Shown here: piece by piece, positions 4,733-64,000 of the stretch
Numbering within the stretch: the stretch's first letter is position 1
How the letters are laid out: each line of letters opens with the position of its first letter
Virus record (IMG/VR): IMGVR_UViG_3300005095_000179
Location: 410 to 64,409 of that record
Strand: one strand, 5' to 3'
DNA length: 64,000 bases
Source: a virus
The notes under the pieces: generated by a model
Databases searched by the model: none
What the model saw: the letters and a program-made list of their open reading frames with translations, nothing else
Told to the model about the DNA's origin: nothing
Made by a program: the position numbers and the translations under genes

Positions 4733-5482
4733 CTAAATTATTTGATATTTAATATTTTTTCTTTCCATAAATTCATATAGTTTAGTTTCCTTTATAGGAT
4801 AGTCTATATCTATGTAGTCTTTAATAACTATACTATTAATTTCTCTTATGGTACTATATATTTCTATCCTATTTATAGCAGGACAGAGAATTCCTTCTGA
4901 AGTCTCTAGTTCGCAAGATAGAATATCTAAGTTTATTATTGGTTTGTTTTCTGTATAGAAAACGATGTCCAATTCTTGAAGTACATATAAAATGTGGTGT
5001 AAAACATTAATTATCAAATCTGTTATAGCTGAGAATTTAGTAGCTAAAGAAAGTTCTTCATTTTCCAGAATATTTTTGACTATCACTTCATGGTAATCAG
5101 AAAGCGGTGACATTAATTTCAAATAGGTTAAGAAATACCTTTTGTCTAAATCAGTACATTGTTCTAAGAGAGTATTGATAACATAATCTTTTCTTTCTTC
5201 GTTCATGTCCCAAACATCATCGAATTTTACTTCATCTTGTTTAATCAATAGGTATTGTTCTATTTCACAAAGTAAATCGAAATAAACATCAAATCTAAGA
5301 AGTAGAATCTCTTTTGCGCTATAACTAAATTCATGGTATGGATTAAATGCTAATTGATTAAAGATAAAGGTTTGTGCTTCCTTGAACTTCGCCAAAGCCG
5401 CACTAGAACCTATTCTGTAATCTATATTATTCCCAACAAACTTCCTTGGGTGGAAGTATTGGTTCTTTACTACTGTTCTCAT
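4733..5482 (-). CDS. Hypothetical protein in the lysis region
   Basis: 249 residues, rich in Ile, Leu and Tyr, predicted mostly helical and soluble, with no recognisable domain. It overlaps the upstream membrane-anchored coiled-coil gene by 4 bases (ATGA), so the two are probably co-translated. A 67-bp AT-rich gap separates it from the muramidase downstream; I see nothing specific in that gap. Confidence 0.6.
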   Translation of the reverse strand: MRTVVKNQYFHPRKFVGNNIDYRIGSSAALAKFKEAQTFIFNQLAFNPYHEFSYSAKEILLLRFDVYFDLLCEIEQYLLIKQDEVKFDDVWDMNEERKDYVINTLLEQCTDLDKRYFLTYLKLMSPLSDYHEVIVKNILENEELSLATKFSAITDLIINVLHHILYVLQELDIVFYTENKPIINLDILSCELETSEGILCPAINRIEIYSTIREINSIVIKDYIDIDYPIKETKLYEFMERKNIKYQII

Positions 5483-5964
5483 TTCTGTAACCCCTTCATT
5501 CCATTAGAATAACTGTTGTACCCATAATCCATCTTAGATTGTAGTTTAGTTAATTCTATCATTATTTCTCTATGGTTCTCTTCGATTCTGTTCTTAGCAT
5601 CACCAGTCTTAGAATCAATGTTATAAGCCACGTCTCTAACCAGATTGTTTAAGATATTCACCAACTCAGTCTGAAGTGCTCTATGGTCAGTTTGAAGCTC
5701 TGAAGAAACACCTTTTGTCTCTTTAAGGACATTCTCTCCATTCTTCTCTATATCTCTTAAAATCTGGTCTATCTTTGTCATTATCCTCTTGTGGTCTTCA
5801 AATTCTTCTTCAATCACCTTCTTCATGGTGTAGAAATCCACCAAGAACGGTTTAAAGTACTTAAAATAACCGACGATCAGCAAGATGATAGTAATCATCG
5901 CATACCCACCGACTGTTCCACCAACAAGTAGTAAGTCTGCCAAACCTTTAATTATTGTTTCCAT
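5479..5964 (-). CDS. Membrane-anchored coiled-coil protein
   Basis: 161 residues. One N-terminal membrane segment (about residues 14-36, GGTVGGYAMITIILLIVGYF) is followed by a long charged, heptad-like region rich in Asn, Asp and Glu. The shape resembles inner-membrane lysis or superinfection proteins and the i-spanin next door, but no family is recognisable. It lies inside the lysis cassette. It could be a pinholin regulator or an accessory membrane protein; this is a guess. Confidence 0.6.
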   Translation of the reverse strand: METIIKGLADLLLVGGTVGGYAMITIILLIVGYFKYFKPFLVDFYTMKKVIEEEFEDHKRIMTKIDQILRDIEKNGENVLKETKGVSSELQTDHRALQTELVNILNNLVRDVAYNIDSKTGDAKNRIEENHREIMIELTKLQSKMDYGYNSYSNGMKGLQK

Positions 5965-5988
5965 GCTGTTCGCTCCGTTTGAATATTC

Positions 5989-6306
5989 CTATTTCTCGCT
6001 TTCAGAAAGTTTCTTCTTCACGAATCCATTATATGCTTCTATCTTAGCTTGACAGACATCTTCATTACTTCTCAATTTCTTTATGTGAGTTAAAATAACC
6101 TTTAAATCTTCTCCACATAAATTAGTATTATGGTTCTTATACCACAAACACCCTTTCCTAACAAAAGTATTCTCTAATTTAGGAACTTTCCTAGGAGCTG
6201 ATAGTTTAGGATAAACTGGGTCTACAAAAATGTATTCTTTGCCGCACCCTGATAAAAATAAAAGAGTTATTATATAGAGAATATATTTAAAAAAACTTTT
6301 TTTCAT
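5989..6306 (-). CDS. o-spanin-like outer-membrane lipoprotein (Rz1 analogue)
   Basis: 105 residues. A type II signal peptide with lipobox LSGC places the lipidated Cys at residue 21, and the residues after it do not include the Asp+2 retention signal. The mature part is short and begins Pro-rich (VDPVYPKLSAPRKVPK). Its ATG shares one base with the stop of the i-spanin-like gene (TAATG), the usual spanin pair layout. It should span the periplasm with that partner and fuse the membranes at lysis. This is the main evidence for a Gram-negative host. Confidence 0.8.
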   Translation of the reverse strand: MKKSFFKYILYIITLLFLSGCGKEYIFVDPVYPKLSAPRKVPKLENTFVRKGCLWYKNHNTNLCGEDLKVILTHIKKLRSNEDVCQAKIEAYNGFVKKKLSESEK

Positions 6307-59095: not shown

Positions 59096-61069
59096 TTAGT
59101 TCACGAACTGCCCAGTTACTCCCTCTCCAAAAATGTCGGAGAATGGTTCAGCTTCATCATACCAGTCATTACCAACTACTTCATCTAATTCTTCGATAAA
59201 ATCTTTATCTAAGTATGGTTTGTAATCAACCTTAGTTCCTAGTATCCATATAGAGTTCGTTACTGCGTCAGCTATATCTTTACTCCCTGGAGTTCCGTCT
59301 TGGTTATGTTCTGGGTGATCTACCTTTTTATCGTCTTCTTTTAAGAAAACAAGTTCTCTATAAAGAATTTGATTATTCGGACCCTTTATTCTTTCGTCTA
59401 TAATGGCATTTCTTAAACCAACATATGGGTCTTTCTTCCTATCTACAGAATTCATGATAGTTTTTATCCCGCCCTTCTCAAGAAGTTGTAGAGTATCAGT
59501 ACTTTGGTAAGAATCCGAAACGACGTATTCTATGTTTATCCCTAATCTCTGAAGTTCGAATATGAATTCCCTTATCTTATAAAGTTTTAGCTGTTCTCCT
59601 TTCGGTGGTCTAATACCAACAGCAAAGTCAACCCAATAAGAGAACTCTTTTAGTTCTCCTTCTCCAACAGTATCGTGAATATGAGACATACATAATCCAT
59701 ACCTATCCCCACTTACTGCTATGTCCAGACCGATTACTTTTTGACTTCCTGGTTTAAACATATCTATTTTATCTACATCGAAGAAATCTATTAGGTTATC
59801 ATTCTCGCCTAATATAATCTCATCCAGCTCACAAGCACCGTGTAATACTAAAGCGTTTTTTATCTTCTCTTTGAAAGGAATAAAAGTCCTTACATCAGAA
59901 ACAGCCATACCGAGTACGTCTCTGATACCAGCATAAATATCATCAAATTCGCCTCTGTATTCTATCGGTACATCAAATATCTTTGTTGGGTCAAATCGTT
60001 TTGCTCTTTCTAAGTCTTTATCATTTTCGATGAAGAATGGATCTGACTGATAGTCACCGATGAATACCTTGAAAGTTTCTCCTGAGTATTTTATCTTATG
60101 CTTAAGAACCTCAAATCTAGGAGCTGAGATAACTAAGATATCTGATTGAGAGAATTCAGAGTCTTTCTTCCCTTCAGCTTCTGATTTTTCTTTAGCATTA
60201 TCTATCATTGTCTGTATAAGAGACCCTTCAGTTGTCGCAGAAGATATCATAGTATAGTGTCCAGCCCATTTGTTTCCTTTTAGTAGGAAACGGGAGTTGA
60301 TCCTATTATACATTTCTGTGATAATATTCTTAGAACCACCCTTTTGGATTTCTTGGTTTACCTCATCAGAAGAAGCCGCATACACGTTTTTACCAACAAG
60401 TGAGTGCTTTCTAGACACCATATTAATATCAATGTTATTGATAAATAGAGATGACCTAGATTTTGTGTTGTCGAATTTAGACCTAAAAAACGGGCTTTCT
60501 CTAACTAGAGACATTATTGGGTCATAGTTCACCTGCTCAATATTTTCCATAGTTGAGTTTGTTAGGGTGAAATATATCTTTGCTGATTTAGGAAGTTTGA
60601 ATCTCAACTGAGGTTCATCCATACAAAGGAGTCTTGCTAAGTCGTAAAGGAAAATAATTGAAGCCACTGTTGTGTTGTGGTGAATGGAACCATCTGGCGT
60701 AGTATAAAGGTGTGGAGCATCTATCCCAAAATCATAGACTACTTCGTCTTCTTTTTCTTTATAACTTTTTATTATCTTATAAGATTTTCCATCTTTATTA
60801 TCTATAGATTTTGCTTCTGAAATTAAAGTTTCTTCTCCGCCAGAAATAACTTTGTGTTTATCTGAAGTTTCTAACCTTTCTCCATTTTCAAGTTCATAAG
60901 TATAAATATCAGATTTTTTCGTAACAAAGAAATTTATCTTAGATAAAGTTTCTTCAGGAGTTTTCACATAAACATCACAAGGAGTTGAGTGCGTTTCTTC
61001 TCTTTCCCCATTGTGTTTGATACCAAGTCGTTTATATAGTTCTCCTATTGGAATTCTTATTTTCTTCAT
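59096..61069 (-). CDS. Terminase large subunit, C-terminal half, with split-intein C fragment
   Basis: 657 residues. Residues 1-132 are the C fragment of an intein: MKKIRIPIGELYKRL, a block-B-like LETSDKHKVI (residues 67-76), and a block F/G end VVYDFGIDAPHLYTTPDG then SIHHN with the terminal Asn at 132. The extein starts TTVASIIFLYDLA, fitting the residues right after Walker A (GK/TT). It continues with Walker B (YAASSDEVN, D235/E236) and the nuclease motifs VIGLDIAVSGDR, VVSDSY and KVDHPE...GSKDIADAV near 598. Walker A itself and the first ATPase strands are missing. They must come from a separate N-terminal polypeptide joined by trans-splicing. Confidence 0.88.
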   Translation of the reverse strand: MKKIRIPIGELYKRLGIKHNGEREETHSTPCDVYVKTPEETLSKINFFVTKKSDIYTYELENGERLETSDKHKVISGGEETLISEAKSIDNKDGKSYKIIKSYKEKEDEVVYDFGIDAPHLYTTPDGSIHHNTTVASIIFLYDLARLLCMDEPQLRFKLPKSAKIYFTLTNSTMENIEQVNYDPIMSLVRESPFFRSKFDNTKSRSSLFINNIDINMVSRKHSLVGKNVYAASSDEVNQEIQKGGSKNIITEMYNRINSRFLLKGNKWAGHYTMISSATTEGSLIQTMIDNAKEKSEAEGKKDSEFSQSDILVISAPRFEVLKHKIKYSGETFKVFIGDYQSDPFFIENDKDLERAKRFDPTKIFDVPIEYRGEFDDIYAGIRDVLGMAVSDVRTFIPFKEKIKNALVLHGACELDEIILGENDNLIDFFDVDKIDMFKPGSQKVIGLDIAVSGDRYGLCMSHIHDTVGEGELKEFSYWVDFAVGIRPPKGEQLKLYKIREFIFELQRLGINIEYVVSDSYQSTDTLQLLEKGGIKTIMNSVDRKKDPYVGLRNAIIDERIKGPNNQILYRELVFLKEDDKKVDHPEHNQDGTPGSKDIADAVTNSIWILGTKVDYKPYLDKDFIEELDEVVGNDWYDEAEPFSDIFGEGVTGQFVN

Positions 61070-61145: not shown

Positions 61146-61424
61146 CTAAGAGTATTTCTCTAGGTGAAGTTCAGTGGCTCTAAGTAGTTTTGCGTTTCCT
61201 CTTCCTAGAACACTTGGGTTTGTTAGCACTTCTTTCTTTTTAAATCTTTCTTTTTGAGAATTATCAAACATTATTTTATCGAAAAAATGAGAAAGTATTT
61301 GTTCTGTATCTGTTGATTTTTTATTACTAAACGAGTCATAGACATTAGGAGAAAAGAACTCTGAACTAGAGGTTTTTCTTGCTAATTTAGAGAGGTTGCT
61401 TTTTAGACTATTTGATATCGTCAT
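61146..61424 (-). CDS. Small hypothetical protein before the terminase C half
   Basis: 92 residues, basic, Ser/Lys-rich and helical (NSLKSNLSKLARKTSSSEFF, GNAKLLRATELHLEKYS at the end). The ribosome binding site is weak (AAAAGA). No family recognised; it is not an intein N fragment and has no Walker A. It could be a small terminase or a bystander in the inter-fragment region. Confidence 0.5.
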   Translation of the reverse strand: MTISNSLKSNLSKLARKTSSSEFFSPNVYDSFSNKKSTDTEQILSHFFDKIMFDNSQKERFKKKEVLTNPSVLGRGNAKLLRATELHLEKYS

Positions 61425-61558: not shown

Positions 61559-62365
61559 TCAACAGTCAAATTTACCTGAAACACATCCTTCGATGTACCA
61601 CTCTGGTTCGTTTCCTTCTAATGGAGAATTCTTAAACATGTCTTTAATATAGTTTAAGTTTTTAGGTTCCCACTTAGAGATATCTCCGTTGAATTCTGAT
61701 TCTTCAAACATACAACACGTACTGGTAACATTCCCGACATTCCACTTAGAGATATCTCCGTTGAAAGAAGATTGTCTGAACATGGTACCCATATCATTTA
61801 CATTACTTACATCCCATTTAGAGATATCTCCGTTAAAAGAAGACCCATCAAACATCCCATACATACTCCTAACATTCCCAACATTCCAATTAGAAATGTC
61901 TCCATTAAATTTAGAATCATAAAACAAATCTTCCATATCAGTGATTCTAGATACGTCTATGTCATTTAGGTCAGCGTCATCACCTCTTTTTTCTATTAAT
62001 TCATTTATTAAAGATTCCAATTCTTCTTCATTTTTAGGAAAGAACTGATAAACTTTTCCACTAGGTTTTCTCGGTGGATTAGAACCTAAACTTCTTCCTA
62101 AGAACTTTTTCATGTCTCGTACTTTAGAAAGGTCTTTAATTGACTTTAGTTTTCTTGAAACTGAGAAATACTCATCACCTTCTTTGAATCCAACCAAGTA
62201 CCCTTCAGTGTTGAAGACTAAAGTCATATTGTCGTATTCTACTTCTAACCTATCCGGATATGTTTCGATGTTGATGGTTTTTGAACCTATGTAGTCCTTA
62301 ATTAAAAACAAATACTTATCTGATTGGGATCCGATTTTTAATTCTTGGATAATTTCTCTTATCAT
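61559..62365 (-). CDS. BspA/DUF285-type repeat protein
   Basis: 268 residues. Residues about 135-260 are five repeats of the 26-residue DUF285 type: FNGDISNWNVGNVRSMYGMF, FNGDISKWDVSNVNDMGTMF and so on. The N-terminal 120 residues (IIQELKIGSQSDKYLFLIKD, LEVEYDNMTLVFNTEGYLVG) form a separate domain with a basic linker. No signal peptide. Such repeats are common on bacterial surface proteins. In a phage, and inside the fractured terminase locus, the role is unknown. AAGGAG start and promoter motif at 62393. Confidence 0.8.
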   Translation of the reverse strand: MIREIIQELKIGSQSDKYLFLIKDYIGSKTINIETYPDRLEVEYDNMTLVFNTEGYLVGFKEGDEYFSVSRKLKSIKDLSKVRDMKKFLGRSLGSNPPRKPSGKVYQFFPKNEEELESLINELIEKRGDDADLNDIDVSRITDMEDLFYDSKFNGDISNWNVGNVRSMYGMFDGSSFNGDISKWDVSNVNDMGTMFRQSSFNGDISKWNVGNVTSTCCMFEESEFNGDISKWEPKNLNYIKDMFKNSPLEGNEPEWYIEGCVSGKFDC

Positions 62366-62392
62366 TTTTGCTCCTTATGAAAATTCTAAAGT

Positions 62393-62400
62393 TATTTAAT
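62393..62400 (-). promoter_or_regulatory. Candidate late promoter ATTAAATA
   Basis: Minus-strand ATTAAATA 28 bp upstream of the 62365 start, overlapping the stop of the 53-residue ORF. Confidence 0.5.
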
Positions 62401-62557
62401 CTTCCATGTATTCACTTAATTCATATTTTTCGATATCTTCGTCACTCATACTGTAAACTATCTTTAGAATCCCATTCACTGATTTTGATATAGGTTGTTG
62501 AAGTTTATCTATCACTTCTTTCTCGAAATTTATTCTTACTTGTATGAATTTTCCCAT
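62396..62557 (-). CDS. Small ORF overlapping the endonuclease end
   Basis: 53 residues: MGKFIQVRINFEKEVIDKLQ, then PISKSVNGILKIVYSMSDED and IEKYELSEYMED. AAGGAA lies 5-6 bases before the ATG. The first 53 bases overlap the endonuclease gene in another frame. Acidic C-terminus, no recognised family. The strong ribosome binding site is the main support. Confidence 0.5.
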   Translation of the reverse strand: MGKFIQVRINFEKEVIDKLQQPISKSVNGILKIVYSMSDEDIEKYELSEYMED

Positions 62558-64000
62558 AATTTTTCCTTATTCTATATTTATAGTTTCCGCAATCATGAAA
62601 TATCCTATATCCATTTATCATTAAATTTTCATTCGCTGTGAGGTGTTCGTTGAAATTTTCTAGTAAGTTCTTTAGTTTATGTTTTTGATACTTCATCCTA
62701 TTCTCTAATTTAAATGTTTTAGGATTCAAAACGAACATGTTTGGCTTTGTGATTGATAACATTTTAGAAAACTTGGAATACACATTTTCCTTAAATGTCC
62801 ACCTTCTATTCCCATATGAAATGATTTCTTCTACATTATTGTATTTGAAATATTCATTCAACAACTTAGAGTATCCTCCAATGACAATGGTGTTTCTCAG
62901 TGAAGCAAATCTATGAAGTTCGTATTCGTCCTTAAATCTAGACTTTCCGAATGTCATAACTGAAACTAATTCTCCATCTATCTCTAAACCAAAGTTTTCC
63001 TTCGCAGCAGTACTTCCTTGGAGATGATTTAAATCTAAAAATTTAGAAGCTTCTTTATGAGAAATTCTTCTTACTTTAGTTTTTCTAGCTGGTATTTTAT
63101 CAGCTTTCCCAAGTTTTAGGAGAATTTTACTTTTCCAAATTTCTTTTTTAATTGGGTCTAACCACTCATCTTCGTTTATATGAAATAAGTGAATATCTCT
63201 TTCTTCACACAATTCAGTTTTATTCAGGTGATAGTTCTTGTCCATAATCTTATTGAACTTTTCGTATTTAGAAATTCCAGAGGTGTGATACATTAATCCG
63301 TTGAATTCTATCGCAAAGTTCAGTTCTGGGATAAAAATGTCTAATTCAAGAGGAGTAATGGTTCTCCTGTCATTCTTTCTTACTTCACCATTATAGTTTT
63401 CTTTTATGAAGTCATATATCTCAAATTCTAAACTTTCTCTTCTGAAGAATTTGTCATCAAATCCCATATCTCCCAATATTGGAATTAAGTATGCTCTAGA
63501 AACATTATAGTACTCTTCCATTTCTTTTAAGGAAACCTTATCTCCTTTAAGAAATTTATCTTCCACCACTTTCTTAGAAAGTTCTAAATCTGAATTAAAA
63601 TCTTTGAAGTAGTAATGTCTAACTCCATATTTCTCAATGAAAGTAGCTTCCAATGAATTATACCATTTTCTATTTCTTTCTTCAAAAATCTTTAAGCCAA
63701 GTTCTTCTCCGTACTTTTCTATACATATTTCTTTACTGAACCGTTTTTGAATTTCACTGATTTTCTTTCTAGCTTCTTCCTCACTAAGTCCTCTTTTGGT
63801 CCAATACAGTACTTGTGTATAAGTGACCCTTTTACTTGAATTATCTGAATCCCAGAATGTTTTAGCTAAATCACTTTGGTACTTTGACACCAATTCTTTC
63901 GCTTCTTTTTGTGAGAATCCTTGAGATATATGCCTTTCTTCTCTATTTGGAAGATTTCTAGTTCTTTTCTTTATAAGTTCTTTTCGTTTTTGTTCATAAT
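62505..64000 (-). CDS. EDxHD/Vsr-like homing endonuclease (partial at window edge)
   Basis: The frame stays open to the window end, so the TTG at 63893 is not the true start. The N-terminal visible part has repeated DNA-binding-like segments (HISQGFSQKEAKELVSKYQS, RGLSEEEARKKISEIQKRFS). The catalytic region is Vsr-like: TPLELDIFIPELNFAIEFNG then LMYHTSG, and a LCEERDIHLFHINEDEWLDP segment with KKEIWKSKI after it. This fits the EDxHD homing endonucleases known from phage introns and from fractured split-intein genes. It lies on the side where the terminase N half should be. Confidence 0.83.
   Translation of the reverse strand, partial: YEQKRKELIKKRTRNLPNREERHISQGFSQKEAKELVSKYQSDLAKTFWDSDNSSKRVTYTQVLYWTKRGLSEEEARKKISEIQKRFSKEICIEKYGEELGLKIFEERNRKWYNSLEATFIEKYGVRHYYFKDFNSDLELSKKVVEDKFLKGDKVSLKEMEEYYNVSRAYLIPILGDMGFDDKFFRRESLEFEIYDFIKENYNGEVRKNDRRTITPLELDIFIPELNFAIEFNGLMYHTSGISKYEKFNKIMDKNYHLNKTELCEERDIHLFHINEDEWLDPIKKEIWKSKILLKLGKADKIPARKTKVRRISHKEASKFLDLNHLQGSTAAKENFGLEIDGELVSVMTFGKSRFKDEYELHRFASLRNTIVIGGYSKLLNEYFKYNNVEEIISYGNRRWTFKENVYSKFSKMLSITKPNMFVLNPKTFKLENRMKYQKHKLKNLLENFNEHLTANENLMINGYRIFHDCGNYKYRIRKNYGKIHTSKNKFRERSDR

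What the first reader, a model, noticed from the sequence alone, without database searches (positions are those of the whole stretch)
59096..61069. Fractured terminase: C half carries an unusually long split-intein C fragment
Seen: the ORF starts MKKIRIPIGELYKRL, contains a block-B-like TSDKH and ends the intein with VYDFGIDAPHLYTTPDG...HHN followed by TTVASII, with no Walker A anywhere in it. The intein part is 132 residues, and it begins at the ELYKRL-type segment that normally follows the first dozen residues of an intein. The missing N fragment should therefore be very short (about 12-25 residues: Cys1, a GDT-like motif). That is the atypical split class described for metagenomic TerL inteins such as AceL-TerL. 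The insertion point inside Walker A (GK/T) means packaging ATPase activity would depend on trans-splicing.
Basis: partly seen in the sequence, partly recalled or inferred. Interest (0 to 1): 0.9.

Follow-up and report, generated by a model that had tools for sequence, protein, structure and literature searches.

The report
Phage DNA-packaging motor gene in halves
This virus of bacteria keeps the gene for its DNA-packaging motor in two separate pieces, each carrying part of a self-removing protein splice element (a split intein), so that a working motor should exist only after the two proteins join; relatives with the same gene whole, split, and split with an added DNA-cutting gene show how such an element comes and goes.

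Summary
The window lies in a 77,137-base virus contig; 0.5-0.8 kb past its end is a 120-aa ORF: 93 aa of terminase (TerL) N-terminus ending SGATGIGK, then a 27-aa Cys-starting intein N fragment. ORF 59096-61069 carries a 132-aa intein C fragment and continues TTVASI, so joining rebuilds Walker A (GIGK|TT). A 628-aa Hef-like homing endonuclease, a DUF285 gene and a small conserved ORF (orfX) lie between the halves. Fourteen viral loci (window included) carry one or both halves at this codon; ten have a whole TerL there, one 98.65% identical in DNA to an occupied locus over 4.9 kb. C fragments in TerLs only 34% identical are 60% identical, so the element has moved between lineages. In three loci direct repeats of the N fragment's 3' region flank the endonuclease gene. 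Splicing and homing are inferred, not assayed. Verdict: a real new variant of the known 'fractured gene' arrangement.

The parts
60674..61069 (-). IntC: 132-aa split-intein C fragment (MKKIRIPIGELYKRL...TSDKH...VYDFGIDAPHLYTTPDGSIHHN)
59096..60673 (-). TerL C-extein (525 aa) from Walker A residue T+1 (TTVASI) to the end of the protein
62505..64000 (-). Homing endonuclease gene, 628 aa, Hef-like (phrog_3339, E=1e-93); true extent 62505-64391, its 5' end runs past the window. The TerL N half (93 aa TerL + 27-aa IntN) follows outside the window at what would be 64455-64817 (G000:C1:64864-65226)
62387..62443 (-). Displaced direct-repeat copy of the IntN 3' end, just after the endonuclease gene (other copy at what would be 64448-64499); it forms the C-terminus of a 53-aa ORF, 62396-62557, probably not an independent gene
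   Evidence: 0 of 500 shuffles reach the score
61559..62365 (-). DUF285 / PARCEL-repeat gene, 268 aa, lodged in the gap; only DUF285 match place in the contig
61146..61424 (-). orfX, 92 aa, conserved directly upstream of IntC in the four C-half loci of this TerL clade whose upstream DNA is held, and in no empty-site locus held

Best explanation
The large terminase gene of a T4-like phage is broken inside the Walker A codons by a split mini-intein. Two separate proteins are made: TerL 1-93 + IntN (27 aa), and IntC (132 aa) + TerL 94-618. Shown by sequence: both halves, the class 1 intein residues at the junctions (Cys1, block B TxxH, C-terminal HN, Thr+1), one insertion codon in many relatives, purifying selection, empty alleles, and much closer kinship of the inteins than of the TerLs that carry them. 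Inferred: the acidic IntN tail docks on the basic N-terminus of IntC, the two fragments fold into one HINT domain, and trans-splicing joins GIGK to TTVAS and restores the P-loop, so that packaging ATPase depends on splicing. Also inferred: the endonuclease between the halves cuts uninterrupted terL alleles near the P-loop and spreads the whole block by homing, while direct repeats of the IntN 3' region let the endonuclease gene enter or leave without harming IntN.
For: The N half ends SGATGIGK|C and the C half starts HHN|TTVAS; joined, they align end to end with whole TerLs. Nine loci (window included) have both halves and five more have one half, all at the same codon. Ten uninterrupted TerLs of the same families have GK|S/T at that codon. 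Occupied L057 and empty L059 are 98.65% identical over 4,891 bp starting at the junction; occupied L012 and empty L013 (same metagenome number) are 94% identical in TerL. IntC of window and L012 are 60% identical against 34% for the flanking TerL; occupied/empty changes at least 6 times on the TerL tree. dN/dS: IntC 0.12-0.22, N half with IntN 0.03, endonuclease 0.07. IntN tails have net charge -1 to -6 and IntC N-termini +1 to +4 in every TerL locus. The endonuclease is flanked by direct repeats in window, L042 and L063, while L063's sister L062 has a single copy and no endonuclease. No Rfam intron in the region. IntC has an intein fold.
Against: No splicing or cleavage assay. Block A is unusual (no D-T after Cys1). 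orfX and the DUF285 gene have no assigned role, so the gap holds more than intein and endonuclease. Intein-only trees are too weak to settle transfer: the window clade is unresolved (support 52/30) and p-AU is 0.124 for the other TerL group. Direct repeats are missing around the endonucleases of L060, L061 and L012. L055 has a frameshift in its N half, an error or decay.
Confidence: 0.88

Rival explanations
1. The fracture is due to a self-splicing intron (group I or II) or to an assembly break, and the HINT-like residues are incidental.
For: Homing endonucleases of this kind also sit in introns, and a terL intron plus intein has been reported for Campylobacter phage IBB_35 (PMC3322345).
Against: No Rfam intron family in the region even at E=0.1; each half has its own start and stop; Cys1, HN and +1 residues fall exactly at the junction; nine loci have both halves, one with a gap of only 106 bases.
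Confidence: 0.03
2. The intein fragments are relics: the two halves work as a two-subunit terminase without splicing, as in genes-in-pieces enzymes.
For: Split enzymes that work unspliced are known (T4-like nrdA in pieces, established knowledge).
Against: Both intein fragments keep catalytic residues and are under purifying selection; a P-loop cut between K and T is unlikely to work unless the residues are joined.
Confidence: 0.04
3. Trans-splicing is real, but the endonuclease, DUF285 gene and orfX are unrelated later insertions and the block is not a mobile unit; occupied and empty alleles reflect old loss.
For: L043, L062 and L071 have no endonuclease in the gap; gap contents differ between clades; loss by recombination is possible.
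Against: IntC is more conserved across distant TerLs than TerL itself; occupied and empty alleles 98.65% identical point to recent gain or loss; homologous endonucleases recur next to IntN in window, L042, L060, L061 and L063.
Confidence: 0.2

Closest known systems
AceL-TerL and GOS-TerL (naturally split TerL inteins with short N fragments)
   Same: Host gene TerL, metagenomic origin, short N fragment (25 and 37 aa) and long C fragment (104 and 115 aa) (PMC11766414).
   Different: Those are cut after helix alpha-1 (S2, PMC13014065) and use Cys+1 (PMC11766414); here the cut is before alpha-1, +1 is Thr, and the site is the P-loop GK|T.
VidaL and PolB16 OarG (S1-split inteins, N fragments of 16 and 15 aa)
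   Same: Cut after beta-2 and before alpha-1, by alignment and model; VidaL also depends on cysteine (PMC13014065). VidaL structure 6vgv is among the fold matches (rank 49).
   Different: N fragment here is 26-32 aa because of a conserved acidic tail; sequence similarity to VidaL is not significant (E=0.1).
Fractured genes with split intein and homing endonuclease (Dassa et al. 2009, as cited in PMC13014065; paper itself not held)
   Same: Split gene, split intein, free-standing endonuclease gene in the gap.
   Different: Endonuclease here is Hef-like (phrog_3339); relatives show the same split with and without it, and direct repeats flank it in three loci.
Split gp41 helicase of cultured Vibrio phage vB_VmeM-32 (KU160494; C half not annotated)
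   Same: IntN of 27 aa, endonuclease in the gap, IntC starting just before alpha-1, P-loop site, HHN|TGKS.
   Different: Different host gene; joined intein about 30% identical; tail only weakly acidic.
Contiguous mini-intein in a clamp-loader P-loop of huge phage LR756508
   Same: PGTGK|C...CHN|TS; the joined intein of relative L012 aligns with it over its whole length (E=5e-13).
   Different: Not split, lacks the acidic tail.

Membership tests
Class 1 split intein | Cys or Ser at intein position 1 after the N-extein | tested here: met
   GIGK|C in the window's N half, GK|C in all N halves found
Class 1 split intein | Block B TxxH, C-terminal HN, Ser/Thr/Cys at +1 | tested here: met
   TSDKH, HHN, T+1 in the window; His72 and His131-Asn132 invariant in 10 loci
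Class 1 split intein | HINT fold | tested here: met
   Model of IntC, pLDDT 82.5; all 50 listed PDB matches are inteins or intein-like, best E=4.5e-5
Class 1 split intein | Two fragments encoded by separate genes that splice in trans | tested here: inconclusive
   Two separate ORFs shown; splicing itself needs an assay
AceL-TerL type (S2 split) | Break after helix alpha-1 | tested here: not met
   Alpha-1 is residues 8-14 of IntC
S1-split inteins (VidaL, PolB16) | Break after beta-2, before alpha-1 | tested here: met
   By alignment with the contiguous relative in L008 and the IntC model; position only, not close kinship
Fractured gene | Homing endonuclease gene between the two halves | tested here: met
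   628-aa ORF, phrog_3339 E=1e-93; absent in L043, L062, L071
Homing element | Endonuclease cleaves the empty allele and the block is copied in | not testable with these tools
   Near-identical empty and occupied alleles are only suggestive
Large terminase (TerL) | Walker A and the conserved TerL regions when the halves are joined | tested here: met
   Joined halves align with whole TerLs over their length
Group I/II intron | Catalytic RNA core between the halves | tested here: not met
   No Rfam match up to E=0.1

The most novel reading that the evidence does not exclude
A distinct natural class of S1-split P-loop inteins in which the N fragment carries a conserved acidic docking tail, and in which the endonuclease gene travels with its own copy of the IntN 3' region, so that it can be gained or lost through direct repeats without ever breaking the intein: a modular, self-restoring homing unit caught in its empty, split, and split-plus-endonuclease states.
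Probability: 0.35. Interest if true: 0.75.

Novelty: new variant of a known kind. Interest (0 to 1): 0.62.

Why it matters
Only a handful of naturally split inteins with short N fragments are known (15-37 aa, PMC13014065), and they are wanted for protein labelling; this family adds about nine pairs with a conserved tail and a defined empty site. It also gives close allele pairs with and without the element, and with and without the endonuclease gene, which makes the question of how fractured genes arise and spread directly testable. And it is an essential motor whose P-loop should exist only after two proteins are joined.

Tried and rejected
Single-protein search of viral contigs with the whole 657-aa ORF found nothing, because it builds patterns from one sequence; alignments worked. 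No relatives of IntC in the genome-contig collection of bacterial and archaeal genomes. orfX has no credible hit in phages or PHROGs, and its model is unreliable (pLDDT 57), so no function is claimed. The 53-aa ORF was first taken for a gene; its tail matches the IntN tail and lies in a direct repeat, so it is read as a displaced IntN end. Direct repeats were not found around the endonucleases of L060, L061 and L012, so that feature is not universal. Tree tests on IntC alone were too weak to prove transfer; the claim rests on identities. The primary papers on GOS-TerL and fractured genes are not held; their features are taken from PMC11766414 and PMC13014065.

Full report
Observation. ORF 59096-61069 (-) is as described: 657 aa, MKKIRIPIGELYKRL, TSDKH, 132 residues to HHN, then TTVASII, no Walker A. 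Neighbours fit a T4-like head module: a portal-sized ORF, a prohead protease (Pfam Peptidase_S77, E=1.5e-4, below its cut-off) and a Gp23-type major capsid protein (E=6e-18). The part after HHN matches TerLs in 346 phage records and aligns with four of them at 30-33% identity.

Finding the N half. The window is bases 410-64409 of a 77,137-base viral record. Reading on gives, on the same strand, a 120-aa ORF at contig 64864-65226: 93 residues that match TerL N-termini (for example YYLGGSLDGGKAVF against YLGGVLDGGKAVY of Thermus phage phiLo) and end SGATGIGK, followed by CLSEKQEMEFYLSEEDIEKYNLEEFVD and a stop. Joined across the intein the motif is GATGIGK|TTVAS.

What lies between. In order of transcription: N half; a 628-aa ORF (window 62505-64391, cut by the window end) of the Hef-like homing endonuclease family (phrog_3339 E=1e-93, phrog_559 E=3e-59; 410 phage records); a 53-aa ORF; a DUF285/PARCEL-repeat gene; orfX (92 aa); the C half. 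No intron family was found.

Relatives. Scans of viral contigs gave loci in several states. Whole TerL at the same codon: L048, L011, L045, L046, L051, L054, L058, L059, L013, L014. Split with no protein gene in the gap: L071 (106 bases). Split with only a small gene: L043 (orfX, 275-base gap), L062 (214-aa gene); L055 has a 76-aa ORF and a frameshift in its N half. Split with endonuclease: window, L060, L061, L063, L042 (N half), and L012 with a shorter endonuclease that shares only the N-terminal part. L009, L010, L049 and L057 show C halves only, near contig ends. L042 and L010 may be two ends of one phage population, since both carry the same kind of repeat gene at the contig end (inference).

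Mobility. L057 (occupied) and L059 (empty) are 98.65% identical over 4,891 bases beginning at the junction. L012 (occupied) and L013 (empty) are 94% identical in TerL. IntC of the window and of L012 are 60% identical while the TerLs are 34% identical; within the window's own TerL clade the relation is reversed (IntC 56% against TerL 77% for L043). At least six changes between occupied and empty are needed on the TerL tree. The intein-only tree is weak and does not by itself prove transfer.

Function kept. For L062/L063 and L060/L061, dN/dS is 0.03 for the N half with IntN (one pair), 0.12 and 0.22 for IntC, 0.07 for the endonuclease (one pair), against 0.04-0.05 for the TerL C part. The catalytic junction residues are kept in ten C fragments.

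Split type. Known natural short-N split inteins are cut after beta-2 (S1: VidaL 16 aa, PolB16 15 aa) or after alpha-1 (S2: AceL-TerL 25 aa, GOS-TerL 37 aa) (PMC13014065, PMC11766414). The IntC model has alpha-1 at residues 8-14, and alignment with the contiguous intein of huge phage LR756508 places the break just before its RELRLPVGRLF. So the break is S1-like. N fragments have a tail of the type MSEEDIKKYxLEEY; a regular expression for it hits only N fragments and the 53-aa ORF in six frames of all loci held at that call. Tails are acidic and IntC N-termini basic in every TerL locus. A docking role is inference.

The 53-aa ORF and the direct repeats. Its last 16 residues match the IntN tail, and at DNA level the IntN 3' end (what would be 64448-64499) recurs just after the endonuclease gene (62387-62443); 0 of 500 shuffles reach the score. 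The same holds for L042 (66 columns, IntN tail) and L063 (99 columns, sequence just after IntN; single copy in the endonuclease-free sister L062), but not for L060, L061, L012. The simplest reading is that the endonuclease gene came in together with a copy of the IntN 3' region, leaving the old end downstream, and can be lost by recombination between the copies. The direction of change is not proven.

orfX. A profile from the three other loci finds the window's copy at E=1.9e-9, and no copy was found in any empty-site locus held, nor in the 155-kb empty-site record searched whole. Its role is unknown.

Wider occurrence. The cultured Vibrio phage vB_VmeM-32 has the same kind of split in its gp41 helicase P-loop, with IntN of 27 aa, endonuclease and IntC; the C half is not annotated in the record. 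This offers a laboratory system.

Judgement. A split-intein, fractured terL is established by sequence; trans-splicing is highly likely; homing is likely; endonuclease turnover through repeats and the docking tail are hypotheses. Kind: new variant of fractured genes with atypically split inteins.

Noticed in passing
L076 (KU160494.1 61410-71712): Cultured Vibrio phage vB_VmeM-32 seems to have two fractured genes: UvsX with a canonical split intein around a SegG-like gene, and gp41 helicase with an atypical split whose C half (locus 4953-6119) is not annotated.
   Followed up: partly
L026 and L027 (TerL frames of 992 and 757 aa): Other TerLs of this superfamily carry contiguous inteins of different kinds at or next to the P-loop: one large with an endonuclease-like insert before the P-loop, one that seems to start with Ser after GK. 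The TerL P-loop looks like a hot spot for several intein types.
   Followed up: no
window 61146-61424: orfX, a 92-aa gene found only next to IntC in split loci of this clade; in L043 its start overlaps the IntN stop (TAATG).
   Followed up: partly
L060:3893-4660, L061:1790-2548, L062:8406-9038, L063:8408-9040: A different gene (260 aa; 214 aa) takes the place next to IntC in the other TerL clades; the two look distantly alike by eye, not tested.
   Followed up: no
window 61559-62365; L042 11642-12291; L010 1-222: Repeat-protein genes (DUF285-type in the window; QTPEICLEAVK repeats in L042/L010) sit inside the terL gap, as if the gap collects cargo genes.
   Followed up: no
L012:7668-8639: A shorter endonuclease gene shares the N-terminal part of the Hef-like proteins (about 30%) but has a different C-terminal part, suggesting swapped nuclease domains at one target.
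   Followed up: partly
L055:1645-2000: The terL N half has a frameshift just before the P-loop, either a sequencing error or decay.
   Followed up: no
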